DNA of 64,000 bases from Blastocatellia bacterium (GCA_026985075.1 JALSQX010000067.1:62001-126000); one strand, 5' to 3'. Positions 46,521 to 64,000 are shown, numbered from the stretch's first letter. The notes: generated by a model from the letters alone, not told the origin. Translations and numbers: made by a program.

Positions 46521-46860
46521 TACCCTGTTCGGTCGATGATCCCAGCAGAAGCGCATCTCCTCGATGAACGATCGAACGGGCGGCTCTCGAAGCGGCACAT
46601 CGAGTCCCGGACGGACGAGCGGTCCAGAAGTTCCACCGACGTCCGAGGATGGGTGAGAGGGTCAGTCGCCCAGCGGCTCTGCTGGATTGTCCTGGCCGTC
46701 TCGCCCTCATCCACCATGTTCCCTCGCCTCCAAGAGGTGGTATAATCGCTGGCGCTTCCAGGGCGGGAGAGAGCATCGTTCAGGGATCATGAGTATGACC
46801 GAGGGATGCCAGATGTCACAGGGCGCCCTTCACCAATCACAAAGGAGGAAAACCCGAGCA
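46521..46860. other. Intergenic leader of sodC
   Basis: 340 bases with no supported gene. A TATAAT at 46741-46746 is the best -10 candidate, about 115 bases before the sodC start; the -35 (around TTCCCT) is weak. Confidence 0.4.
46741..46746 (+). promoter_or_regulatory. Candidate -10 box for sodC
   Basis: Perfect TATAAT upstream of the sodC lipoprotein gene; no strong -35 partner. Confidence 0.3.
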
Positions 46861-47427
46861 ATGAGACGAACCGCTTTTTCCATTCCGCTTCTTCTCGTCG
46901 TGGCGATGATGGGTTGTCGCTCGTCGTCCACGAATCAGGCCAGCCCATCTCAACCCGCCACTCCACCGGCTCCGGAGATCACCAAGGCGATTGCCGTTCT
47001 GCATCCGACCAAAGGGCACGACGTCCATGGCATCGTCACCTTCACTCGAACTCCTGGCGGCATCCGCGTGGTCGCCGATGTTCAGAATCTGGAACCCGGC
47101 GCGCACGGATTCCACATTCATGAATACGGGGATTGCTCGGCTGACGATGGAACCTCGGCCGGAGGCCATTTCAATCCCACCGGCATGCCCCACGGCGGTC
47201 GGCATGCCGAGAAGCGCCACGTTGGCGATCTGGGGAATATCACGGCCGACGCTTCGGGTCGGGCCAGAGCCGAATTCGTCGATGCGCATCTCTCATTCGA
47301 GGGAACGACATCCATCATCGGTCGGGCCGTCATCATTCATGCTCGAGCCGATGACCTGAAGTCTCAACCCTCAGGAGCTGCCGGACCACGGGTGGCTTGC
47401 GGCGTCATCGGCATTGCGAAACCATGA
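46861..47427 (+). CDS. sodC: Cu-Zn superoxide dismutase, lipoprotein
   Basis: 188 residues. PGAHGFHIHEYGDCS, SAGGHFNP, HAEKRHVGDLGNI and the terminal GPRVACGVIGIA carry the copper and zinc His/Asp ligands and the disulfide Cys pair. The N-terminus (IPLLLVVAMMGC) is a lipoprotein signal, so the enzyme detoxifies superoxide outside the cytoplasm. AGGAGG is upstream of ATG 46861 by 13 bases. Upstream in-frame ATGs lack signal-peptide logic. Confidence 0.93.
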   Translation: MRRTAFSIPLLLVVAMMGCRSSSTNQASPSQPATPPAPEITKAIAVLHPTKGHDVHGIVTFTRTPGGIRVVADVQNLEPGAHGFHIHEYGDCSADDGTSAGGHFNPTGMPHGGRHAEKRHVGDLGNITADASGRARAEFVDAHLSFEGTTSIIGRAVIIHARADDLKSQPSGAAGPRVACGVIGIAKP

Positions 47428-50705: not shown

Positions 50706-51722
50706 ATGACCAAGAACGACGAGGCGTTGTTCGAAGCCTTCCTCAACCGACACGATGACCGAGCGTGGTGGGAGGTCATCCGCTCCCTGCTTCCTTCCAT
50801 TCACGAGGTCGACCGAACGGCGACTGAGATCTGGTTCCACTTCTTCCCGCTGGCCTTGGCGCGGGCCTTTCAGGAGACGGATGATCCGGCGGCGTTGGCC
50901 AGAGATCTCGTGTTGCGCGGAACCTATGATCTCAAAGAGCAGATCGACCGCTCTCATCGATTCATGTACGGTCATCGCTATTGGCCGCAGGTTAAGCATG
51001 CCGTGGAAGAACACATCTCGTCGGCCAACGCGTCGAAGAGTATCGACCTGGCCACCCACATTCGCGACGTCGCTCGTCGAGTGGCGCAAAAGCTCGATGT
51101 CGATGAGTCGTTGCTCATCGGCATCACCGCCGTCGCCTTCATGACGCTGCAGCAGGTGGGAGTGGCCGCCTTTCGAGCGGCCCCGGGCCGGGTGACGGTG
51201 GGACGCGCGTTCGCCCGGAAGTCACCAGAACGCGTGGTCAAAGAGCGAGCTCGCGATGACCGGCAAGGCCTGCTCGGTTTTCTTCGAGGCCCCTGGCGAC
51301 GATTCACGGTCACGTTTGACGAAAATGATGACCAGGCCACATTCCCTCTCATCGAGACGCAACATTTGACCACGGCGGCGGCGTATGATCAGCGCGACTA
51401 TACCAGCCGCGATCCGCGCTGCATCCGGGGCGAAGGACCGATTCCGGTGCAATGCCGCTCGGCCTCATGCGGCTACTGCTGGGTCGGCATTCTGGCCGGC
51501 GCCGAGAAACTCTCACCGGTGACCGAATTCGAAAAAAATCGCATCCGGTTCTTCGGCTATATTGAGACGGACGAGCCCCATCCGCTCATCCGGCTCGCCT
51601 GCCAGGCGCAAGGGTTCGGCAATGTGACCATCGTCATTCCGCCGTGGAATGGAATCCTGGGAAGCTTCCTTCGCCGGAAGAGGGCCGCGCGGGTCGAAGC
51701 GCACGAATCATCCGGCGGCTGA
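50706..51722 (+). CDS. Unknown domain fused to plant-type 2Fe-2S ferredoxin
   Basis: 338 residues. Residues about 1-195 are a helical domain I do not recognise (WEVIRSLLPSIHEVDRTATEIWFHFFPLALARAF). Residues about 198-315 are a plant-type ferredoxin: C250-x4-C255-x2-C258-x40-C299 (QCRSASCGYCW ... RLACQAQGFGNVTI), which bind a 2Fe-2S cluster; an additional C239 precedes. GAGG lies 7 bases before ATG. The gene stands 129 bases before the ACP gene on the same strand, so it may supply electrons to lipid chemistry encoded downstream; that is inference. Confidence 0.75.
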   Translation: MTKNDEALFEAFLNRHDDRAWWEVIRSLLPSIHEVDRTATEIWFHFFPLALARAFQETDDPAALARDLVLRGTYDLKEQIDRSHRFMYGHRYWPQVKHAVEEHISSANASKSIDLATHIRDVARRVAQKLDVDESLLIGITAVAFMTLQQVGVAAFRAAPGRVTVGRAFARKSPERVVKERARDDRQGLLGFLRGPWRRFTVTFDENDDQATFPLIETQHLTTAAAYDQRDYTSRDPRCIRGEGPIPVQCRSASCGYCWVGILAGAEKLSPVTEFEKNRIRFFGYIETDEPHPLIRLACQAQGFGNVTIVIPPWNGILGSFLRRKRAARVEAHESSGG

Positions 51723-51851
51723 AAAGTGGTGACGGATCGAACGGCGACGGTCACCGCCGAGGCCCGCGTGGTGACTCCCCATCTCGGAGAACGAGGGAAA
51801 CGAGGCGGGTCGCCGGTCAACGCCGTGGTGGTCGCTCAGAGGAGATGACAG

Positions 51852-52094
51852 ATGCGATCGCAACAGCAGATCATCGATGACATCCTCAATCTGGCGGCAG
51901 CTCACTTCAATGTCCCGAGAGATGAACTCTCCCCCGATGATGACTTCTTCGAGAAGCTGGGCATTGATAGCCTTCAGGCGCTGGAGCTATTGACCCGACT
52001 GGAACATCACTTCCATATCGAATTGCCCGATTATGAACTCCAAGGAGTGAGCAGTTTTCGCGCGCTGGCCGAGCGAATCTGGGCGAGACTCTGA
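51852..52094 (+). CDS. Acyl carrier protein
   Basis: 80 residues. [26 protein letters not shown] has the phosphopantetheine-accepting Ser at position 40 (GIDSLQ). Small acidic helical protein that carries acyl groups as thioesters. GGAG 7 bases before ATG. The stop overlaps the ligase start by one base (TGATG), a coupled pair; likely a dedicated ACP rather than the general fatty-acid-synthesis one, since no fab genes flank it. Confidence 0.93.
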
Positions 52095-53803
52095 TGCTGG
52101 ACCTGAGTCAATACCAGTCACTGGGCGAGGCGCTCCGCGATGCGCTCGAGCGGTGGTCCGACCACATCTGCCTCATCGAAGCGAATCGCGACCGGGAGAA
52201 CTGTCGGCTCACCTACCGGGAATTCAAGGCGGCCGCGCTCCGCCTGGCGCGCGGACTGCAGGATCTCGGCGTTGGCCCGGACACCCGCGTGGCCATCATC
52301 ATGACCAATCAGTCCAAATGGCTCATCTCGGCCTACGCCGTGTTCTACCGGGGAGGCGTCCTCGTGCCGCTCGATTATAAGTTGAGCAGTCAGGAACACC
52401 TGGAGTTGCTCACCCATAGTCGAAGTACGGTGCTCATCATCGAATATCCCTTCTGGCGCGCGCTCACCCGGGTCGATGGATTCACTGACTTGACCGTCCG
52501 AACTGTTCTCGTCACCGAGGCTCCTGCTGATGTGGACCTTCGCGGCGCCCAGCGCTGGGAGACCTGCCAGGGCGAGGAGCAACCGCAGTTCGTTTCTCGA
52601 CGCCGCCAGGATACGGCCTGCATCGTCTACTCGTCCGGCACGGGGGGACGACCGAAAGGATGCGTGCTCACCCACGAGAATTACCTCGAACAATGTATAG
52701 CCCTGACGGCGATTTATCCCTTCTGGCCGGGGGTACGCTATCTGAGCATCTTGCCCACTAACCACGCCATCGATTTCATGGTCGGTTTCATCGGTCCATT
52801 CGTCTGCGGCGCCGCCGTCGTCCATCTCCGGACGTTGCGTCCCGAATATATCAGGGACGCCTTCCCGCGATATAAGATCACGCATATGAGCCTGGTCCCG
52901 CTTGTCTTGAAGAATCTCGAGCGCGGACTGCGGGAGCGGTTCGCTCAACTCCCGGCCTACCGGAGAGCCATCCTCCATGGGCTCATGCGACTGAATCGCT
53001 TCCTCACCCGCAAGGAACCGAATCTCGCTCTGAGCCGTCGACTGTTCCCCCAGATTCATCGGGCGTTCGGCGGCGAACTCCGTATGTTGATCGTCGGCGG
53101 CGCATTCACCGAGCCGGCCACGCTCCAGTTTTTCTATGACCTCGGCATTCCGGTGGCCAACGGATATGGCTTGACCGAAGCGTGTACGGCGGTCACCGTC
53201 AATGACTTGAAGCCCTTCCGGGCCGATACGGTGGGCAAGCCCCTGCCGGGAATCGAGGTGAACATCGTCGATCCCGATGCCGATGGGATCGGCGAGATCG
53301 CCGTTCGGGGCAAGACGGTCATGTCTCACTATCTGGACGATCCCGAGCTCACCCGAGAGACGATCGTGGATGGATGGCTCATGACCGGCGATCTGGGCCG
53401 CATCGACGAGATGGGCCACCTGCACCTTGTCGGGCGGAAGAAAAATATGATCGTCACCGAGGGCGGGAAGAATATCTATCCCGAGGACATCGAACGGACC
53501 TTCGAAGGGCTTCCCGTCAAGGAGTACTGCATCTTCGCCGCCAACTACATCTGGCCTCAACGATCCCTGGAGGGGGACCGATTGGTCATCGTCGTGCATC
53601 TGGAACCGGGGCAGGCGTTCACCGAAGAACTGCGAGACGAACTCGTCGCGCGCAATCGCCGCCTCCCCGATTTCAAGCGGGTCGGCGGTTATCTGGTCTG
53701 GGAGGAAGATTTTCCCCGCACGGCCTCCCTCAAGATCAAGCGGACGGTGCTGGCCGAGCACATTCGTCAGCAGTGCGACCGCACGGCTATGGTGACGTTA
53801 TGA
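52094..53803 (+). CDS. AMP-dependent acyl-ACP/acyl-CoA ligase
   Basis: 569 residues. [21 protein letters not shown] (P-loop), [45 protein letters not shown] and a C-terminal TASLKIKR lysine region define an adenylate-forming fatty acid ligase. The ACP gene directly upstream, and overlap with it, suggest it loads fatty acids onto that ACP. Downstream it overlaps the lipid kinase gene by 4 bases. Confidence 0.9.
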
Positions 53804-54702
53804 CGACCTCGTTTCTGGCTGTGGTCAATCCGGCTGCCGGGAATGGGCGATGTCGCAAGTTGGTGGGATCAGTGCTCGACCGCTTGCGCGCCTCCGGCAT
53901 TCGAGTAGATGTCGTCTATACGGAACGCCCCGGGCACGCCATCGAATTGGTCAGGGAGGCCGCGGCATCGGGATTTCACCAGTTCGTGGCCGTAGGCGGC
54001 GATGGCACGGCCTTCGAGATCGTCAACGGGCTCTTCCCACAGGCCGAGCGGGGTCCCCGGCCCACGTTGGCCTTCCTCCCCCTGGGCACGGGCAACTCCT
54101 TCTTGCGGGACTTCACCAGCCGGGGCGTCGAGCACGCGCTGGAGGCGATGGTCGCTGGACGCCGCCGGCCTTGTGACGTCCTCCGTCTCACCCACCGACA
54201 GGGCGTCCTTCACTATATCAACCTCCTCAGCATGGGATTTCCGGCCGATGTGGCCACCATCGTGAACCGGCGGTTCAAGTCTCTTGGAGAACTGGGTTAT
54301 CTGCTGGGCGTATTCACCTGTCTGGTCCGCCTGCGCCAGCGCGCTTTTCCGCTCCGGGTGGACGGGGAACCGGACGCCGACCGTCGTCCCTGTCTGTTCC
54401 TCACATTCAGCAACAGCAAGTTCACCGGAGGGAAGATGATGATCGCTCCCCAGGCCGATGTCGCCGATGGGTTGATCGAGGTTGTACGCTGGGGGCCGGT
54501 GGGGCGCTTGGAACTGGTCAAGAATCTGCCCGGCCTCTACGACGGCACTCACATCCTCAATCCGAAATCTTCGCGTCGCCAGGCGCGGCGCATCGACTTC
54601 GAGCTGGAGGGACCGGTGAACGTCATGGTCGACGGCGAGGTTCTGACTCTTCATTGCCAGAGACTGGAGGTCCTGCCGGCCGCACTCACTGTCATGGTGT
54701 GA
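53800..54702 (+). CDS. Diacylglycerol/lipid kinase family protein (DagK/YegS type)
   Basis: 300 residues. [16 protein letters not shown] nucleotide-binding start, [16 protein letters not shown] (GGDGT), [14 protein letters not shown], and VMVDGEV near the end are the conserved blocks of soluble diacylglycerol and related lipid kinases. Phosphorylates a lipid alcohol such as diacylglycerol or an alkyl analogue. ATG 53800 overlaps the ligase stop (ATGA). PlsC follows after 3 bases. Confidence 0.9.
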
Positions 54703-54705
54703 ACC

Positions 54706-55494
54706 ATGCATCGCGGACGCCGACCGTCCTTCTTCACACGATCTCCTCTCACGCTCCGGAAACTCTATCTCATCATTCGCAGTCTCATTCTCTGGATGCT
54801 CAGCATCGTGCATTTTTTCCCCATCTGCACGTTGCTGGTCATCATCGGCGTCCTGTTGGGCCACCGACGGACTGACCGGCTTCAGCGCCTCTTCTTCAGG
54901 AATATCCTCCGCCTCGCTGGCGTGAAATTCGAGGTGCGCTACGCGCCGGGATTCGATCCCACGCGCACCAGCTTCTTCGTGTGCAATCACGTCAATATCT
55001 TCGACGCCTTCGTCATCTATTCGGCCATTCCCCAGTTCGTGCGCGGCCTGGAGCTGGAATCTCACTTCAAGATCCCGGGCTATGGATGGATGATGAAATA
55101 CTTCGGCAATATCCCGGTGAGCAGCAACCCGAGCCCCGCTGAACTGAGGGACATGATGCGGCGGGTCAAGCGAGCGCTCGCCGACGATGTGAGTCTGATC
55201 GTGTTCGCCGAAGGAACGCGCACCCGCGATGGGCGCGTCGGCCCTTTCAAAAGAGGGGTCTTTGCCATGGCCATCCAATTGGGATATCCCATCGTTCCCA
55301 TGAGCATCGTGGGATCTTACCAGTTCAACCGCAAGGGCAGCTGGATGCTCTACCCATCGACGATCACCGTCTATATCCACGACACCATCGACACCAAAGG
55401 GATGACCAAAGAAGACGTCGACGCCCTGCGCGATCGGGTGCATCGGATCGTCGCCGAGCCCGTCGATGAATCTCTCCGGGCATTCACTCATTGA
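54706..55494 (+). CDS. plsC: 1-acyl-sn-glycerol-3-phosphate acyltransferase (PlsC family)
   Basis: 262 residues. An N-terminal membrane helix (LSIVHFFPICTLLVIIGVLLG), the acceptor motif CNHVNIFDAF (H-x4-D), the phosphate-binding FAEGTRTRDG and PIVPMSIVGSY. Transfers an acyl group to the sn-2 position of lysophosphatidate, giving phosphatidic acid. Last gene of the ACP-ligase-kinase-acyltransferase operon; likely uses the ACP-loaded acyl donor. Confidence 0.92.
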   Translation: MHRGRRPSFFTRSPLTLRKLYLIIRSLILWMLSIVHFFPICTLLVIIGVLLGHRRTDRLQRLFFRNILRLAGVKFEVRYAPGFDPTRTSFFVCNHVNIFDAFVIYSAIPQFVRGLELESHFKIPGYGWMMKYFGNIPVSSNPSPAELRDMMRRVKRALADDVSLIVFAEGTRTRDGRVGPFKRGVFAMAIQLGYPIVPMSIVGSYQFNRKGSWMLYPSTITVYIHDTIDTKGMTKEDVDALRDRVHRIVAEPVDESLRAFTH

Positions 55495-55892
55495 TCGCTC
55501 CCCTCGGCCGGATTCCGCCACGACGGAGATCGTCGCCACCACCATCGAGTGAGTCAAAGTGATACTCACCCCCGCGATCCCGAGAATCCTTTGTTATCAT
55601 AATGATACACCGTGTTGCTTCTTCCTCAGATATAGGTATCAGAACGACACATCAGTGTGATTTCACACGTCGGGGCGCTCGCGGGGTTTCAGCGATAAGT
55701 CCCCTACTTTCAATTCGATACGGCTGAAAAGGGAGCATACTCTGAATGGCACGGTGTTTGCAAGCCTAAAAGTTGAGTTACAAAAACAATAACGCTATGA
55801 CAATCATGCTGGCTATGAACAGGCAATGAAGGTTTATCTTGGCCAAAGTCAAGGGGGGGTCTTGGTTTTGGCCCCAGAAAAGGAGGCATGCT
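55495..55892. other. Intergenic region with promoter elements before the radical SAM gene
   Basis: About 398 bases, AT-richer than its surroundings. It holds the odd palindrome TATCAT-A-ATGATA (55595-55607), an inverted repeat TTTCAGC (55687-55693) / GCTGAAA (55723-55729), and a promoter-like pair at 55773-55801. No gene is supported. Confidence 0.5.
55773..55801 (+). promoter_or_regulatory. Probable promoter of the tetraether-synthase-like gene
   Basis: TTGAGT (55773-55778) and TATGAC (55796-55801) are 17 bases apart, a fair sigma-70 match, about 92 bases before the start at 55893. The upstream palindrome at 55595-55607 could be an operator. Confidence 0.4.
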
Positions 55893-57956
<2,064 letters not shown>

Positions 57957-57969
57957 GCCGAGAGTGCGA

Positions 57970-58004
57970 GCTGGCTCTCTGGGGATACCTCCCCAGAGGC
58001 CAGC
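57970..58004 (+). terminator. Strong GC-rich hairpin after the tetraether-synthase-like gene
   Basis: GCTGGC (57970-57975) and CTCTGGGG (57977-57984) pair with CCCCAGAG (57991-57998) and GCCAGC (57999-58004), a 14-bp stem with one bulged T and loop ATACCT. Outer bases add a few more pairs with a bulge. No T tract follows, so it may be a partial terminator or an mRNA processing/stability element between the two radical SAM genes. Confidence 0.5.
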
Positions 58005-58243
58005 CTCGATGAGGGAGTCGCTCATGGGCTCGCGCCCACCACGAAGGGTGAACATCGATAGCTCAGTGCCGCGCCAAGGAGGGTGTGTGACGACGATGAT
58101 ACACCACCTCATCGGAGACCGACTTTCGCAGACGTGGGGAAACGCTCCGCGCACACCTCGGTTGATCTTGCGCGTCATTGGATTTGGCATGCTTGTCAGC
58201 GCATGAGTTGCTGTGGGCATCAATGAATGAGGAGGAACCAACT

Positions 58244-59527
58244 ATGAGTGAGCAGATGCACATCCCGTCCAACAAACAGCAGGGACACGCGCCACCGCCT
58301 TTTCGCATCGATGTCCCCCTGCACAGTCTGCTGATGAAGCCAACTCAGCCCAAGAGAATTCCGCTCAGAGAGCCGCAGTCGTTACCCGAGCCGGTTTATC
58401 CTCAGCAGACTGAGCGGAAGCCGTCGGGTCTATCTTACCACGCCCATAACGGTCTTCGGGCCCTTCGCCGATGGCTCATCCCCTATATCAAGTCGCGCAT
58501 TTACGCTCATGAGTTCCGACCCATACTCTCCTATCTGTTCACCGAGTGGAAATGCAATCTCGATTGTCACTACTGCTGGTCGTTCAACAACCAGGTGAAG
58601 GGCATGACCGAGGATGTGGCCAAACGCTCCATCGATTGGCTTCACTCGGTGGGTTGCCGGGTGATCGCCATCATGGGAGGCGAACCCCTCCTTCGGCCCC
58701 ATTTCATTCACAAAGTGGTCTACTATGGCACGAAGCGCGATTTCTTCGTCTACTTGCCGACCAACGGTCGTCTCATGCGTCCCGAGGTGATCGACCGGGT
58801 GGGCGATGCCGGCGTGGCGGCGATCAATCTGGCCATCGACTGCGTCGATGAGAAGCCAGGGCTCCCCAAGGCGTTGAATCCCATCCGCAGCTATTTCGAT
58901 TATCTGGTCAAGGCGCAGCGTCGCTATGGCTACATGGTGGTGTTCAACATCAACATCACCCGGATCAACATCGAGGATGTGAAAATACTGACCGAGATCG
59001 CCCATGACCACGGGATTTCCACCGACTACCACATCAACGAACCTCCCATGATCGAGCAGTCGCACTTCAAGCATCTGGAAGACAACGTCACCTACCTGCG
59101 ACCCGAAGACTGGCCGCGGGTCGACGAACTGCTCGACTATCTCATCGAGAAGAATAAACAAGGCTATATCATGGTCAATTCCAAACAGCATCTGGCCGAC
59201 ATGAAGGATTTCATGCGCGGCAAGGTGAGACCATGGCAGTGCCGGGCTGGCCATAACTCGTTGGTCATTCGGACCGATGGGAGTCTCGCCCCCTGCTTCC
59301 CCATGTACTCGGCTCAATATGACTGGGGGACGATCGAGAATCCCAAATTCGACTTCCGGCAACTCGATGAGATGAAGAAGGAGTGCAATACGCATTGTCT
59401 ATCAACCTGTCAGTACGTGCTGGGACACTATTACAATAATCAGCGCGTCTTGCGCTGGATCATCAAACAGGCGCTGCATGGGCTCAGCGGGCTCAAGAAC
59501 CTCGATGTCGCTGTGGCGCAAGCCTAG
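58244..59527 (+). CDS. Radical SAM/SPASM-like protein
   Basis: 427 residues. WKCNLDCHYCWS (C104, C108, C111) is the cluster motif and MGGEPLL (144-150) the AdoMet strand. The C-terminal part has further Cys groups (PWQCRAGH, LAPCFPMY, KECNTHCLSTCQYV) of SPASM/auxiliary-cluster type. No B12-binding domain, so it is not a GrsAB-like cyclase. The first 95 residues are proline-rich and unassigned. GAGGAGG lies 8 bases before ATG 58244; ATG 58223 is upstream. It is placed between the tetraether-synthase-like gene and the regulator, so it may modify the same lipids; its reaction is unknown. Confidence 0.85.
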   Translation: MSEQMHIPSNKQQGHAPPPFRIDVPLHSLLMKPTQPKRIPLREPQSLPEPVYPQQTERKPSGLSYHAHNGLRALRRWLIPYIKSRIYAHEFRPILSYLFTEWKCNLDCHYCWSFNNQVKGMTEDVAKRSIDWLHSVGCRVIAIMGGEPLLRPHFIHKVVYYGTKRDFFVYLPTNGRLMRPEVIDRVGDAGVAAINLAIDCVDEKPGLPKALNPIRSYFDYLVKAQRRYGYMVVFNINITRINIEDVKILTEIAHDHGISTDYHINEPPMIEQSHFKHLEDNVTYLRPEDWPRVDELLDYLIEKNKQGYIMVNSKQHLADMKDFMRGKVRPWQCRAGHNSLVIRTDGSLAPCFPMYSAQYDWGTIENPKFDFRQLDEMKKECNTHCLSTCQYVLGHYYNNQRVLRWIIKQALHGLSGLKNLDVAVAQA

Positions 59528-59633
59528 CGTCGGGCAGACCGCGAACCAGGACCGAGAATGATCGGGCGATCAATGGGCGACGCCGAACCCGGGAGCGTCA
59601 TCGCTCCGCTCAAATGGAGCGCGCATGATATGC

Positions 59634-59662
59634 TTGACACCAGGTGAGGGCTATGGTATCTA
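59634..59662 (+). promoter_or_regulatory. Promoter-like pair at the tetR start
   Basis: TTGACA (59634-59639) is a perfect -35; TATCTA (59657-59662) follows after 17 bases. It overlaps the first ATG at 59653. If it is real, translation would begin at the GTG at 59698, which has GGAG 6 bases upstream. Confidence 0.45.
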
Positions 59663-60312
59663 TTGCCGTCATCGAAAATCCCTGGACGGAGCCGAGAGTG
59701 GTCGGACAGAGTGAAGTGAGAGCTGCGCGACGCAAGCACATCCTCTATTGCGCCAAGCAGGTCTTCTCGAAAAAAGGATTCCACAACGCCAGCGTCAGCG
59801 ATATCGTCGATCGCGCGGGCATCGCCCGAGGGACATTTTATCTCTATTTCACCAGCAAGCGGGATATCTTCGACAGCTTGATGGAAGATCTCCTCCAAGA
59901 ATTGCGCCAGCGCATCAAGCCGATCGACATCGGCCCCGACAGCCCGAATCCACTGGAGCAGCTCAAGGCCAATGTCCGTCGCGTGCTGGAACTGGTCATC
60001 CAGGATCCGGAACTGATCCAGATTATGTTCCACCACGCCGCTGGCTTGGATCAGCGCTCGGCAGAAACGGTGCGGACGTTTTATGACCGCGTGCTGGACA
60101 TGATCGAACGGTCGCTGGAACATGGAATCCGCCTCGGCCTGGTCCGTCCCTGCCAAACGCGCATCGTCGCCTCCTGTATCCTGGGGACAATCAAGGAGGT
60201 GGCCGACTGGATGACGGGAAGGCGACGAACAGTCCCACCACTGGACGTTCTGGTGGAGGAGATCCTGCGGTTCGGCCTGCGCGGCGTCTCGACACAACCA
60301 CAGGATATTTGA
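59653..60312 (+). CDS. TetR/AcrR family transcriptional regulator
   Basis: 219 residues from ATG 59653. The DNA-binding domain is RKHILYCAKQVFSKKGFHNASVSDIVDRAGIARGTFYLYFTSKRDIFDSLM, with the helix-turn-helix typical of TetR proteins; the remaining 140 residues form a variable ligand domain. It probably represses lipid genes and responds to a hydrophobic ligand (acyl-CoA or free fatty acid are common for relatives). Two palindromes of TetR-operator size lie directly after its stop (60341-60360, 60510-60539), pointing to the downstream genes as targets. A GTG at 59698 is an alternative start. Confidence 0.92.
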   Translation: MVSIAVIENPWTEPRVVGQSEVRAARRKHILYCAKQVFSKKGFHNASVSDIVDRAGIARGTFYLYFTSKRDIFDSLMEDLLQELRQRIKPIDIGPDSPNPLEQLKANVRRVLELVIQDPELIQIMFHHAAGLDQRSAETVRTFYDRVLDMIERSLEHGIRLGLVRPCQTRIVASCILGTIKEVADWMTGRRRTVPPLDVLVEEILRFGLRGVSTQPQDI

Positions 60313-60320
60313 TCGGCGTT

Positions 60321-60364
60321 AAAAATTTTTATCGATTGGATAGACTGACATGTCAGTCTATTAT
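60321..60364 (+). promoter_or_regulatory. Operator-promoter module 1 (TetR-type palindrome between -35 and -10)
   Basis: AAAAATTTTT (60321-60330) is followed after 10 bases by the perfect 20-bp palindrome TAGACTGACATGTCAGTCTA (60341-60360). It sits within a promoter: TTGGAT (60336-60341), 17 bases, TATTAT (60359-60364). A repressor bound to the palindrome would cover the space between both boxes. The gene encoded just upstream is a TetR repressor. Confidence 0.75.
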
Positions 60365-60388
60365 GGCCCCAACCCGGAGAGAGTGAAT

Positions 60389-60496
60389 ATGAGCATGCTC
60401 TTGACCGCGCGTGCTCTCGATGACCGAGAACGCGCGTTCCCCGGCGCCCCGCCGAGCGACGGCTTGTGCAACGGGTGGGAACACGCCGGGAGCTAA
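60389..60496 (+). CDS. Possible small peptide, 35 residues, between the two operator modules
   Basis: ATG at 60389 with GGAGAG 7 bases upstream, running to TAA at 60494-60496 (MSMLLTARALDDRERAFPGA start). It would be the first open frame on a transcript from module 1. No known family; it may be a leader peptide, or chance. The TAA is formed by the A tract of module 2. Confidence 0.3.
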   Translation: MSMLLTARALDDRERAFPGAPPSDGLCNGWEHAGS

Positions 60497-60539
60497 AAAT
60501 TTTTTCTCCACAACTAGACTGACGTGTCAGTCTAGTTGT
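60495..60539 (+). promoter_or_regulatory. Operator module 2 (extended TetR-type palindrome)
   Basis: AAAAATTTTTT (60495-60505) is again followed, at the same spacing, by TAGACTGAC-GT-GTCAGTCTA (60515-60534). Here the arms extend to 14 bases on each side (ACAACTAGACTGAC at 60510-60523, its complement at 60526-60539). The positions matching -35 and -10 of module 1 are poor, so this copy may be a second operator without its own promoter. It ends 33 bases before the next gene. Confidence 0.75.
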
Positions 60540-60572
60540 CAGCGATGAACGACCTGAGAAAGGGGGATGCGT

Positions 60573-62084
60573 ATGGAGACCGTCACACACTATACAGCGT
60601 ACAGGCCACGACCTTTCCGCAGGGAGGAACGAGAAAAAGTCACCATCCTGTTCGGCGGATTGACGTGGAAACACGAACGACTCGTCCAAGGCGCCTTGCA
60701 TAATCTCAATTACAAGGCCGAGCCTCTGCCCAATGTGTCTCGAGCTGATCTGGACGTGGGCAAAGAGCTCATCGACGTGGGCGCCTGTTGTCCCACGATC
60801 TTCACGACCGGTAATCTGATCAGCTTCCTCAAATCCAAGGTCCAGGATCATGGGAGAGACTACGTGGTGGACCGATATGCCTTCCTGACCGCCGGGGCGT
60901 GCGGTCCCTGCCGGTTCGGTCAATACCACGAGTCCTACACGATGGCCCTGGATGGATTGGGCTTGCGAGATTTCCGACTTTTCCTCCTGGACCAGAATCA
61001 GTTGGATCAGGGAGCGGCCAATGGAGGCGGACTGGAGATCAACCTTCCTTTCACCGCCGGGATCATCTGGGCCATCCTGTGCGGAGATCTCCTGACTGAT
61101 CTGGAATACATGACGCGCCCCTATGAAGTCCACCCGGGCGAGACCGAGCGCGTGTTGCGCGACAGCGTGGAGTACCTCTACGAGGTGTTTCGGAACCGCC
61201 CGATCAGGGGCAAGAAATGGCGCGTGTTGGCCTGGCACCTCCTCTCGGATTATTTCACCGGGGCGCTCCGGAGAGTGAAAAAAATGTGGGAGACTATCGA
61301 AGTCGATCGCCTTCAGCCCAAGCCGAAGGTGAAGATCACCGGCGAATTCTGGCTCCAAACCCACGAGGGCGATGGAAACTACAACATCAAACGCTGGCTC
61401 GAGCAGGAAGGAGCCGAGATCATCCCACCGCCCATCGCCGTGTGGCTCGATTACCTGCTGCGCTCCAACATCCAGAAACTGGAAGATAAGCGCGAGGTAG
61501 ACAAGCGGGCTGGTCGGAAAGTCGCACTGGTTCGCACGCTTCAGCGCGTCTACCGAGGAACCTATAACCGGCTGAGGCGGGCGCTCGGGAATCTCCCATA
61601 CGAGCTTCCCAATCAGGACGAGCTTCGTCGGCTGGCCGCGCCTTACTTTCACAACCGGCTGGCCGGTGGCGAGGGCGACATGCTCGTCGGCAAGGCGCTC
61701 TATGCCTACCATCACAAGAAAGCGCACATGATTTGCGAACTCTCGCCCTACTCGTGTATGCCCAACACCATGTCGATCGGGGCCATGGCCAATGTGCTCG
61801 GTCAGTACCCCGACTTGCTCTATGCCCCCATCGAGATCAAAGGGGACGCCGAGGTCCACGCCCTGTCACGTTGCCAGATGATCCTGACCGAGGCGAAGAA
61901 ACGCGTTCAGCAGGAGTTCGATGAGGCGCTCGCCAAAACGGGATTGACCATTGAGGCGATCCGACGCTACGAAGAGCGCCATCCGGAACTCCGAAGAGCG
62001 ACCTATCGCGTCCCCCATCGGGGCTATCCCGGAACGGCGACGAACTATGTCATTCACATCGCCGAGCGGATGGGGAAGATGTGA
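60573..62084 (+). CDS. 2-hydroxyacyl-CoA dehydratase-like protein (HgdB/PlsA-Ger related)
   Basis: 503 residues. KELIDVGACCPTIFTTGN (C72, C73), LTAGACGPCRFGQYHESY (C110, C113) and, near 388-402, CELSPYSCMPNTMS are the Cys groups of the benzoyl-CoA reductase/2-hydroxyglutaryl-CoA dehydratase family, where they hold 4Fe-4S clusters. The same domain occurs in clostridial PlsA and in Ger, which turn glycerol acyl esters into vinyl or alkyl ethers under reducing conditions. The activase gene follows after 51 bases. AGGGGG is 6 bases before ATG 60573. Ester reduction is inferred from family and neighbours; a CoA-type substrate remains possible. Confidence 0.8.
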   Translation: METVTHYTAYRPRPFRREEREKVTILFGGLTWKHERLVQGALHNLNYKAEPLPNVSRADLDVGKELIDVGACCPTIFTTGNLISFLKSKVQDHGRDYVVDRYAFLTAGACGPCRFGQYHESYTMALDGLGLRDFRLFLLDQNQLDQGAANGGGLEINLPFTAGIIWAILCGDLLTDLEYMTRPYEVHPGETERVLRDSVEYLYEVFRNRPIRGKKWRVLAWHLLSDYFTGALRRVKKMWETIEVDRLQPKPKVKITGEFWLQTHEGDGNYNIKRWLEQEGAEIIPPPIAVWLDYLLRSNIQKLEDKREVDKRAGRKVALVRTLQRVYRGTYNRLRRALGNLPYELPNQDELRRLAAPYFHNRLAGGEGDMLVGKALYAYHHKKAHMICELSPYSCMPNTMSIGAMANVLGQYPDLLYAPIEIKGDAEVHALSRCQMILTEAKKRVQQEFDEALAKTGLTIEAIRRYEERHPELRRATYRVPHRGYPGTATNYVIHIAERMGKM

Positions 62085-62135
62085 TGGTCCCGGCGGGATG
62101 ATGGAGCGAAGCGCGGTATTTCAAGGAGGAACGTC

Positions 62136-64000
62136 ATGAAGGAGACTCATCGATTGATCTGCGGCATCGACGTGGGGAGTACGACCTGTAAATATGTTCT
62201 GTCTTCGTCCACCGGCGACATTCTCGCTCAAGCTTATGAGCGCCACAACACCAAGCAAGCCGAAAAGGTCTTGGAGTTCCTCACTCAGCTCGAACGAGAG
62301 CACGGCTTCACCCCCCGGCGGGATCGCCTCTTCTTCACCGGCTCAGGATCGGGACTGATCGCTCCACTGGTGGGAGGACGGGTCGTGCAGGAGGTTGTCG
62401 CCGTGGCCGCGGCGGTGGAGCGACTCCATCCCGCCGTGTTCTTCGTCAGCGAGATCGGGGGCGAGGACATGAAGACGATCTTTTTCAAAGGCAATGGCCA
62501 GGCCAAGAACAAACAGGTGTTGATGCAAAGCGCCTGCTCCGGCGGCACGGGCACGTTCATCGAGAAGACGGCCCGCAAACTCCAAATCCCCCTGGAACAA
62601 CTCTCCCAGATGCGGTATGAGGGCTATACGCTGCACAAGATCAGCAGTAAATGTGGTATCTTCGCCGAAGCTGACGCCAACACGCTGGTCAAAGCCGGCG
62701 TGCCCGTCCAGGAGATCATCGCTTCCCTGTTCGAAGCCGTCGTCTATCAAAACCTGGCCACCTTGACCAAAGGGAACACGCCGATGCCGGAGGTCCTGCT
62801 CTTGGGCGGACCCAACATGTTTTTCGTCGGATTACAGGAGGCGTGGCGCCACCATCTGACGAAGCTGTGGGCGGAGCGAAACATCTCCCTGCCCGCGGGA
62901 AAAGCGCCCGAGGATCTCATTCATGTGCCCGACGATGCGCTTTACTACGCGGCTCGCGGCTGCGTGGAGGTCGGCCTCGGCGAACCAGAAGACGTGGCCG
63001 TGTATCAGGGCACGGCGAGATTGAGATGGTGGCTGGAGGAAGGGCAGTACGAACAAAAGAAGAAGGAGGGACGGAAAGGCCTGTGGGTCACTTTGGACGA
63101 ACTCCAGCAGTTCAAGGCCAGATACAACGGTCACCTGCGGCGTGTCCTGCCCCAAGCCAGGACCTCATCCTCCCTCGGCCGAGTGATCGTCGGCTGCGAC
63201 TTCGGCTCAACGACGGCCAAAGCCGTCTGCCTCTCTCCGGAGGAGGAACTGCTGTTCTCTTGCTATGCGCTCAGCAAAGGGAATCCCATCGAGGATGCCA
63301 AAGCTCTGTTTCGGCAACTCAAGGAGGCCATCGGCGACGGTGAGATCCTGGCCCTGGCCATCACCGGCTATGGGAAAGATCTGCTCAAAGACATCGTAGG
63401 CGCCGACTGTGCCGTCGTCGAAACCGTCGCCCACGCCACGGCGGGACTTCACTTCTTCCCCGACGCCGACTGTATCTGTGATGTCGGTGGCGTCGATGTC
63501 AAGATCATGATCCTGAAGAATGGAACCGTCTCGGATTTCCGGTTGAACTCGCAATGCTCTTCCGGTAACGGCGCTTTCCTTCAGGGCGTGGCCGAGCGAT
63601 TCAATATCCCGCTCACCGAGATCGCCGACAAGGCCTTCCAAGCTCGAGCCATGCCTCAGTTGACCATGGGCTGCGGCGTGTTCCTGCAGAGCGACATCGT
63701 CAATCAGCAACGGAAGGGATGGCAAGCCGAAGAAATCCTGGCCGGTCTGTGTGCCATTCTCCCCCTGAATGTGTGGATCTACGCCGGTGGCCTGAGCAAT
63801 CTGGCTCAAGTCGGCAAGAAGTTCATCCTCCAAGGGGGAACGCACAAGAATCTGGCGGTCGTCAAATCACAAGTCGATTTCATCAAATCGAAGGTTCCCG
63901 ATGCCGAGATCGTGGTGCATCCCTACTCGGGCGAAGCGGGTGCCATTGGTGCTGCTCTCGTCGCCATAGACTGGTGGAAACGAGGCGGACGAACGCGATT
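62136..64000 (+). CDS. Tandem-domain acyl-CoA dehydratase activase (BadF/BcrA type), partial
   Basis: At least 621 residues, open to the window end. Two ASKHA ATPase domains are seen: first LICGIDVGSTTCKYVLS (7-23), SACSGGTGTFIEKTARKL and SSKCGIFAEADANTLVKAG; second from about 350, VIVGCDFGSTTAKAVCLS, CDVGGVDVKIM, SQCSSGNGAFLQGVAERF and MGCGVFLQSDIVNQQ. Such activases use ATP to drive single-electron transfer from an Fe-S cluster held between two domains into the dehydratase partner. PlsA/Ger proteins begin with the same tandem activase. AAGGAGG upstream of ATG 62136. In this genome activase and dehydratase-like parts are separate genes; the end of the gene is not visible. Confidence 0.85.
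   Translation, partial: MKETHRLICGIDVGSTTCKYVLSSSTGDILAQAYERHNTKQAEKVLEFLTQLEREHGFTPRRDRLFFTGSGSGLIAPLVGGRVVQEVVAVAAAVERLHPAVFFVSEIGGEDMKTIFFKGNGQAKNKQVLMQSACSGGTGTFIEKTARKLQIPLEQLSQMRYEGYTLHKISSKCGIFAEADANTLVKAGVPVQEIIASLFEAVVYQNLATLTKGNTPMPEVLLLGGPNMFFVGLQEAWRHHLTKLWAERNISLPAGKAPEDLIHVPDDALYYAARGCVEVGLGEPEDVAVYQGTARLRWWLEEGQYEQKKKEGRKGLWVTLDELQQFKARYNGHLRRVLPQARTSSSLGRVIVGCDFGSTTAKAVCLSPEEELLFSCYALSKGNPIEDAKALFRQLKEAIGDGEILALAITGYGKDLLKDIVGADCAVVETVAHATAGLHFFPDADCICDVGGVDVKIMILKNGTVSDFRLNSQCSSGNGAFLQGVAERFNIPLTEIADKAFQARAMPQLTMGCGVFLQSDIVNQQRKGWQAEEILAGLCAILPLNVWIYAGGLSNLAQVGKKFILQGGTHKNLAVVKSQVDFIKSKVPDAEIVVHPYSGEAGAIGAALVAIDWWKRGGRTR

What the first reader, a model, noticed from the sequence alone, without database searches (positions are those of the whole stretch)
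50706..64000. A contiguous gene set for ether-linked, membrane-spanning bacterial lipids
Read from the sequence: ferredoxin-domain protein, ACP, acyl ligase, lipid kinase, PlsC, a Tes/Mss-type radical SAM enzyme, a second radical SAM protein, TetR regulator, HgdB-like protein and tandem activase, all on one strand. From family knowledge: Tes joins lipid chains by C-C bonds, and PlsA/Ger (HgdB plus activase domains) reduce ester-linked chains to ethers. Acidobacteria are known for iso-diabolic acid and ether lipids. The co-location of the chain-coupling, ester-reducing and acyl-supply steps under one regulator would be a complete locus for tetraether-like lipids. Joint function is inference.
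Basis: partly seen in the sequence, partly recalled or inferred. Interest (0 to 1): 0.9.

Follow-up and report, generated by a model that had tools for sequence, protein, structure and literature searches.

The report
Lipid-coupling and ether-lipid gene cluster
An uncultured bacterium of the phylum Acidobacteriota carries, side by side, genes that should weld lipid tails into membrane-spanning chains and turn ester-linked lipids into tougher ether-linked ones, a pairing proposed before but not shown as one locus, plus an unnoticed radical-SAM partner enzyme that travels with the ether genes in many relatives.

Summary
The coupling enzyme is a Tes-family radical SAM protein. It keeps the catalytic core of GDGT-MAS/Tes (radical SAM, rubredoxin and C-terminal cluster ligands, Met439, Tyr459) but lacks the N-terminal Fe4S4 ligands and scores below the Tes equivalog cut-off. 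The HgdB/activase/DUF2229 genes map colinearly onto PlsA-PlsR, the plasmalogen/alkyl-ether ester reductase (Ger family), not onto ordinary 2-hydroxyacyl-CoA dehydratases.

The 'one contiguous locus' is specific to this lineage. In the nearest relative the same genes sit at three sites: acyl-supply operon, Tes, PlsAR cassette. But pairwise links recur elsewhere: Tes beside PlsAR in one other acidobacterium and two planctomycetes, and the second radical SAM gene beside, inside or behind PlsAR in ten relatives. Cassette and Tes co-occur (20/22 genomes against 143/247).

A Tes + PlsAR route was proposed for Solibacter usitatus in 2022, so the idea is known. New here: the physical linkage, the split PlsAR clade, the Tes variant without an N-cluster, and the PlsAR-linked radical SAM protein.

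The parts
50706..51722 (+). g1: ~220 aa unassigned domain + C-terminal plant-type [2Fe-2S] ferredoxin-like domain (C-X4-C-X2-C...C); probable electron carrier
   Evidence: Fer2 E=0.0025; conserved in 40/247 phylum genomes, nearly all of the class; first gene of the g1-g5 operon in G132 (L191) and next to Tes in two f33 genomes (L187, L188)
51852..52094 (+). g2: acyl carrier protein
   Evidence: PF00550 E=3e-16
52094..53803 (+). g3: AMP-dependent fatty-acyl ligase, probably loading the ACP
   Evidence: PF00501 E=9e-75
53800..54702 (+). g4: YegS/DAGK-type lipid kinase
   Evidence: TIGR00147 140 bits, over its cut-off of 118.65; start codon checked
54706..55494 (+). g5: PlsC-type acyltransferase
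   Evidence: PF01553 E=1.5e-20
55893..57956 (+). g6: Tes-family radical SAM lipid-coupling enzyme (N-cluster-less variant)
   Evidence: PDB 7TOL E=7e-67 over 500 aa; NF045702 322 bits, cut-off 450; ligand table; only copy in the genome at E<=1e-20
58244..59527 (+). g7 (rSAM2): radical SAM protein with four further conserved Cys, SPASM/twitch-like; PlsAR-associated
   Evidence: PF04055 E=3.5e-18; Cys conservation; beside the PlsAR cassette in 10 other loci
59644..60312 (+). g8: TetR-family regulator directly upstream of the PlsAR cassette
   Evidence: PF00440/PF17932; same place in L040, L050, L085, L101, L152, L156
60567..62084 (+). g9: PlsR-type (HgdB/BCR-HAD fold) reductase subunit
   Evidence: Only hits in the annotated plasmid collection are PlsA C-termini and a PlsR; Foldseek DCCP/HadC/MbdON
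62136..64000 (+). g10: double activase (PlsA N-terminal two-thirds), continues to 64319 outside the window
   Evidence: TIGR00241/PF01869; Cys pairs 134/173 and 474/513, CHWC near the C-terminus; 32% to Listeria PlsA 5-614. g11 (DUF2229, PlsA residues 670-999) follows at 64258-65433 = L009:258-1433

Best explanation
The locus brings together three pieces of a pathway to membrane-spanning, partly ether-linked bacterial lipids. (A) g1-g5: an acyl-ACP ligase, ACP, lipid kinase and PlsC supply and re-attach (probably iso-branched) acyl chains to glycerol-phosphate lipids; g1 is a ferredoxin-like electron carrier. (B) g6, a Tes-family radical SAM enzyme, abstracts H from chain ends and joins two tails by an sp3 C-C bond (an iso-diabolic acid-type chain). 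(C) g9-g11, a three-gene version of PlsA/PlsR (Ger): the double activase g10 uses ATP and Fe-S clusters to drive electrons into the g9/g11 reductase, which reduces glycerol ester bonds to (vinyl or alkyl) ethers. TetR g8 most likely controls (C), and g7 is a radical SAM partner of (C) of unknown step. Shown here: family membership, catalytic residues, conserved modules, recurrent linkage. Inferred: substrates, order of steps, alkyl versus vinyl ether, joint product, control by TetR.
For: Tes core ligands, Met439 and Tyr459 conserved (residues from PMC9433317). g10, g11 and g9 align to consecutive segments 5-614, 670-999 and 994-1404 of Listeria PlsA, with far higher scores than to other HgdB/activase sets. 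g9 hits only PlsA/PlsR proteins in 72,556 records. Cassette conserved as a unit in nearly all loci. Tes beside the cassette in L099, L138, L148. rSAM2 beside it in ten relatives, before, inside or behind it. Tes-g1-DAGK linked in L187/L188; g1-g5 conserved in L191. Fused AMP-ligase/ACP/PlsC beside Tes (L060) and beside the cassette (L045). Co-occurrence cassette/Tes 20/22 against 143/247, Fisher p=5e-4; 19/20 named acidobacterial cassette genomes have Tes. Sole copies of Tes and PlsR in the genome. TetR upstream of pls is also reported in facultative anaerobes (PMC9702350). Tes + PlsAR was proposed for the brGDGT producer S. usitatus (PMC10087280).
Against: The full arrangement is found in this genome only; modules are unlinked in the nearest relatives. 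The PlsR clade is separated from characterised PlsA by a very long branch (100/100, 3.56), and the Tes clade from N-cluster Tes likewise, so substrate shifts are possible. Most class-mates have Tes without the cassette. Outside Acidobacteriota only 3 of 29 cassette genomes have Tes. No lipid data exist for this organism. Fisher values ignore shared ancestry.
Confidence: 0.64

Rival explanations
1. Two or three independent lipid modules that happen to be neighbours. Tes makes ester-bound iso-diabolic acid; PlsAR separately makes ether lipids or plasmalogens from ordinary phospholipids, for example at low oxygen under TetR. No joint tetraether product.
For: Modules lie apart in G132 and in most relatives. 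Most class-mates have Tes without the cassette. Cassette without Tes outside Acidobacteriota. 254-398 bp gaps between modules.
Against: Independent Tes-cassette adjacency in L099, L138, L148; cassette genomes of Acidobacteriota nearly always hold Tes.
Confidence: 0.25
2. The HgdB/activase set is an ordinary 2-hydroxyacyl-CoA dehydratase or a benzoyl-CoA-reductase-like enzyme of amino acid or aromatic degradation.
For: Same fold and activase family.
Against: No CoA-dehydratase family hit for g9. g9 matches only PlsA/PlsR by sequence. Two activase domains plus CxxC plus DUF2229 in the PlsA order. Lipid-gene neighbours.
Confidence: 0.05
3. g6 is not a coupling enzyme but another Tes-superfamily lipid modifier (for example methylation or cross-linking), because it lacks the N-terminal auxiliary cluster.
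For: N-cluster ligands absent in the whole acidobacterial clade; score under the Tes cut-off; long separating branch.
Against: C-terminal cluster with labile Met439, which carries the lipid-sulfur intermediate in GDGT-MAS, and Tyr459 are invariant. Tes homologues of about this similarity occur in iso-diabolic-acid/brGDGT producers such as E. aggregans (PMC8941075).
Confidence: 0.12

Closest known systems
Tes / GDGT-MAS (MJ0619, PDB 7TOL; NCBIfam NF045702)
   Same: Rubredoxin-type CxxC/CxxH, radical SAM CxxxCxxC, C-terminal cluster ligands, Met439, Tyr459, Gln268/Ser271/Arg275; 500-aa alignment
   Different: No N-terminal Fe4S4 ligands (C73/C77/C80/His); 322 bits against a cut-off of 450; separate deep clade
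PlsA-PlsR / Ger (plasmalogen synthase, glycerol ester reductase)
   Same: All PlsA segments present with two full activase domains, as in proteins validated as Ger (PMC13274423); split PlsA/PlsR as in C. perfringens (PMC12838417); TetR beside it as in facultative anaerobes (PMC9702350)
   Different: Three genes with PlsR first; deep separate clade shared with other Acidobacteriota, Ignavibacteria, Planctomycetes and others; radical SAM partner gene
Proposed Tes + PlsAR route for brGDGTs in Solibacter usitatus (PMC10087280)
   Same: Same two enzyme types in an acidobacterium, without ElbD
   Different: There inferred from homologues in the genome; here the genes are physically linked with acyl-supply, TetR and rSAM2 genes, in another class
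Mss (bacterial membrane-spanning lipid synthase)
   Same: Same proposed reaction; Mss models reported to keep the Tes catalytic architecture (PMC13274423)
   Different: No Mss sequence could be compared here

Membership tests
Tes / GDGT-MAS | Radical SAM CxxxCxxC, rubredoxin-type CxxC...CxxH | tested here: met
   (ligand columns); the first CxxC read from the sequence (CPKC)
Tes / GDGT-MAS | C-terminal auxiliary cluster (3 Cys + labile Met439) and catalytic Tyr459 | tested here: met
   conserved in all 25 rows
Tes / GDGT-MAS | N-terminal Fe4S4 cluster (C73, C77, C80, His) | tested here: not met
   absent in the window protein and all 20 other window-type homologues; present in L079, L138, L148
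Tes / GDGT-MAS | NCBIfam equivalog cut-off (450 bits) | tested here: not met
   322 bits; L079 523, L138 499, L148 497. Filed as Tes-family, not as Tes equivalog
PlsA/PlsR (Ger) | Two activase domains with Fe-S ligands, CxxC, DUF2229, PlsR reductase domain | tested here: met
PlsA/PlsR (Ger) | Closer to PlsA than to other HgdB/activase sets | tested here: met
   g9 108 bits to Listeria PlsA, 33 to Monoglobus HgdB; g10 302 against 152-181; g11 109 against 38-63
PlsA/PlsR (Ger) | Within the clade of known PlsA-type proteins | tested here: not met
   Sister clade with a long stem
PlsA/PlsR (Ger) | Ester to ether activity; alkyl (Ger) or vinyl (PlsA) | not testable with these tools
   PMC13274423: not decidable from sequence
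2-hydroxyacyl-CoA dehydratase (HgdABC/HadBC) | HgdA/HgdB-type subunits by sequence | tested here: not met
   No Pfam/NCBIfam hit for g9; only fold-level similarity
Mss | Groups with Thermotogota/Bacillota Mss | not tested
   No reference sequence reachable; the plasmid search gave no Bacillota homologue
elb ether-lipid cluster (ElbD) | ElbD homologue | not tested
   No ElbD reference sequence was available; whether this genome carries ElbD was not examined

The most novel reading that the evidence does not exclude
Acidobacteriota without the elb route make their glycerol ethers with a deep-branching split PlsAR, and the linked radical SAM protein g7 is a dedicated third enzyme of that conversion (for example sn-2 ether formation, vinyl-ether saturation or tail tailoring). 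Coupled to an N-cluster-less Tes this would be the acidobacterial brGDGT pathway, here caught as one locus.
Probability: 0.35. Interest if true: 0.78.

Novelty: new variant of a known kind. Interest (0 to 1): 0.6.

Why it matters
brGDGTs are widely used palaeothermometers, yet how Acidobacteria make them is still called unclear (PMC11868695). A locus that links a Tes-family coupling enzyme with a PlsAR-type ester reductase gives a compact gene set to express and test. It also names one so far unnoticed candidate (g7) and marker sequences (N-cluster-less Tes, split PlsR clade) for predicting producers in metagenomes.

Tried and rejected
Ordinary HgdABC/benzoyl-CoA reductase: rejected on sequence. 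Conservation of the whole gene order: tested and not found. An elb-type context for g7 in class-mates: g7 loci L160-L179 show no widely shared neighbour (neighbours there were only clustered, not annotated). Mss references from the plasmid collection: none. Operon limits by promoter/terminator scan: chance level. AlphaFold model of g7: too weak (pLDDT 62, seven sequences), so no fold search was made. PDB profile search of g9: no meaningful hit.

Full report
WHAT IS THERE. The window is contig C67, bases 62001-126000, of a 5.2-Mb genome. Its nearest named relative among the fetched loci is an uncultured Blastocatellia MAG (L085; PlsAR cassette 76-82% identical; Tes 81%). From 50706 on, eleven genes lie on the + strand: g1 ferredoxin-like, g2 ACP, g3 acyl ligase, g4 YegS/DAGK kinase, g5 PlsC, g6 Tes-like radical SAM, g7 second radical SAM, g8 TetR, g9 HgdB-like, g10 double activase, g11 DUF2229. 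g10 ends at 64319 and g11 at 65433, beyond the window. g2-g5 and g9-g11 are tightly packed (overlaps to 51 bp); gaps of 398, 287, 116 and 254 bp lie around g6, g7 and g8.

THE COUPLING ENZYME. g6 finds GDGT-MAS/Tes of Methanocaldococcus jannaschii (7TOL) at E=7e-67 over 500 residues, next best E=8e-7. Mapped on the published ligands (PMC9433317), it keeps the rubredoxin-type and radical SAM ligands, the C-terminal cluster with labile Met439, Tyr459 and Gln268/Ser271/Arg275, but has lost C73/C77/C80/His of the N-terminal cluster. All 20 other window-type homologues tested agree, whereas L079 and the planctomycete L138/L148 keep these ligands. The same split appears in NCBIfam scores (322 against 497-523, cut-off 450) and in the tree (100/100). 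So it is Tes-family by core and a distinct variant by cofactor content. Tes-like genes occur in 143 of 247 phylum genomes, in line with Zeng 2022 (PMC8941075).

THE ETHER CASSETTE. g10, g11 and g9 align to consecutive parts of Listeria PlsA (5-614, 670-999, 994-1404), and g9 also to Fusobacterium PlsR. In the annotated plasmid collection g9 matches nothing else. Both activase domains carry the Cys pair 39 residues apart, as in the 2-hydroxyglutaryl-CoA dehydratase activator (own knowledge). A model of g9 (pLDDT 88) matches DCCP, HadC and MbdON with probability up to 1.0. Two activase domains correlate with alkyl-ether-forming Ger (PMC13274423), but alkyl versus vinyl ether cannot be decided by sequence. 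The tree puts the split form in its own clade (100/100) with a long stem; the window's sub-clade holds acidobacterial, Aquificaceae, proteobacterial and Rokubacteria MAGs (98/99), which suggests horizontal transfer.

CONSERVATION. The g9-g10-g11 unit is kept in practically all loci with enough sequence, usually as two genes, PlsR and fused activase-DUF2229. Tes is within 10 kb of it in L099 (acidobacterial, subdivision 13), L138 and L148 (planctomycetes): 3 of 22 named genomes holding both, where by my rough estimate (20 kb of about 4.5 Mb) about 0.5% each would be expected by chance. rSAM2 is beside it in L049, L053, L114, L121, L122, L130, L146, L149, L207 and L208, upstream, inside or downstream, and co-occurs with it genome-wide (9 of 22, p=1.6e-5). 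TetR is upstream in L040, L050, L085, L101, L152 and L156. g1-g5 form a conserved operon (55-78%) in the same-family genome G132 at another site, and Tes-g1-DAGK are neighbours in two f33 genomes. Beside Tes in G132, and beside PlsAR in L045, lies a fused AMP-ligase/ACP/PlsC protein. Against this, Tes, acyl operon and cassette are on three contigs in G132, and most Tes genes stand alone. Pairwise links therefore recur while the full cluster does not. Fisher values do not correct for shared ancestry.

HOW IT MOST LIKELY WORKS. Acyl chains are activated, loaded on ACP and placed on glycerol-phosphate lipids (g2-g5); g6 couples chain ends; PlsAR (g9-g11) reduces ester to ether with ATP-gated low-potential electrons; g1 may feed electrons; g8 probably represses or activates g9-g11. 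The order of steps is open (PMC13274423, PMC10087280). g7 has a radical SAM cluster and four further conserved Cys and no B12 domain in the Pfam scan, so it is unlikely to be a B12-dependent methylase; its step is unknown.

WHAT IS KNOWN AND WHAT IS NEW. Tes plus PlsAR was proposed for S. usitatus (PMC10087280), Mss and Ger for Bacillota and Thermotogota (PMC13274423), and TetR next to pls for facultative anaerobes (PMC9702350). I found no report of the linkage, the split clade, the N-cluster loss or g7; only open-licence papers were searched, and the key 2022 Mss/Ger paper is not held.

Noticed in passing
L009:1425-2669 (-) and L009:4181-5926 (-), just downstream of the cluster: Two more radical SAM genes with SPASM-type C-termini, the second with two unassigned genes (L009:2699-4169), convergent to the cluster: four radical SAM genes within about 15 kb.
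   Followed up: partly
L086:10001-14749: An Aquificaceae MAG carries the window-type PlsAR cassette at 64-70% identity inside an otherwise mostly acidobacterial clade; transfer or a binning error.
   Followed up: partly
L060:4589-8523: Next to Tes in the same-family genome: a fused AMP-ligase/ACP/PlsC protein and another radical SAM gene (24% to g7); a similar radical SAM gene lies next to Tes in L063 and L193.
   Followed up: partly
L079:9282-10928 (-): Some Acidobacteriota carry a true NCBIfam-level Tes (523 bits) with all cluster ligands, so the phylum holds at least two Tes kinds.
   Followed up: partly
L119, L132, L134, L103, L104, L116: In Ignavibacteria the PlsAR cassette follows a conserved block that includes an FAD amine-oxidase-like protein and paired ~290-aa proteins of unknown role.
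   Followed up: no
window 46687-47427: ORF reading like a Cu/Zn superoxide dismutase lipoprotein; identified by eye only.
   Followed up: no
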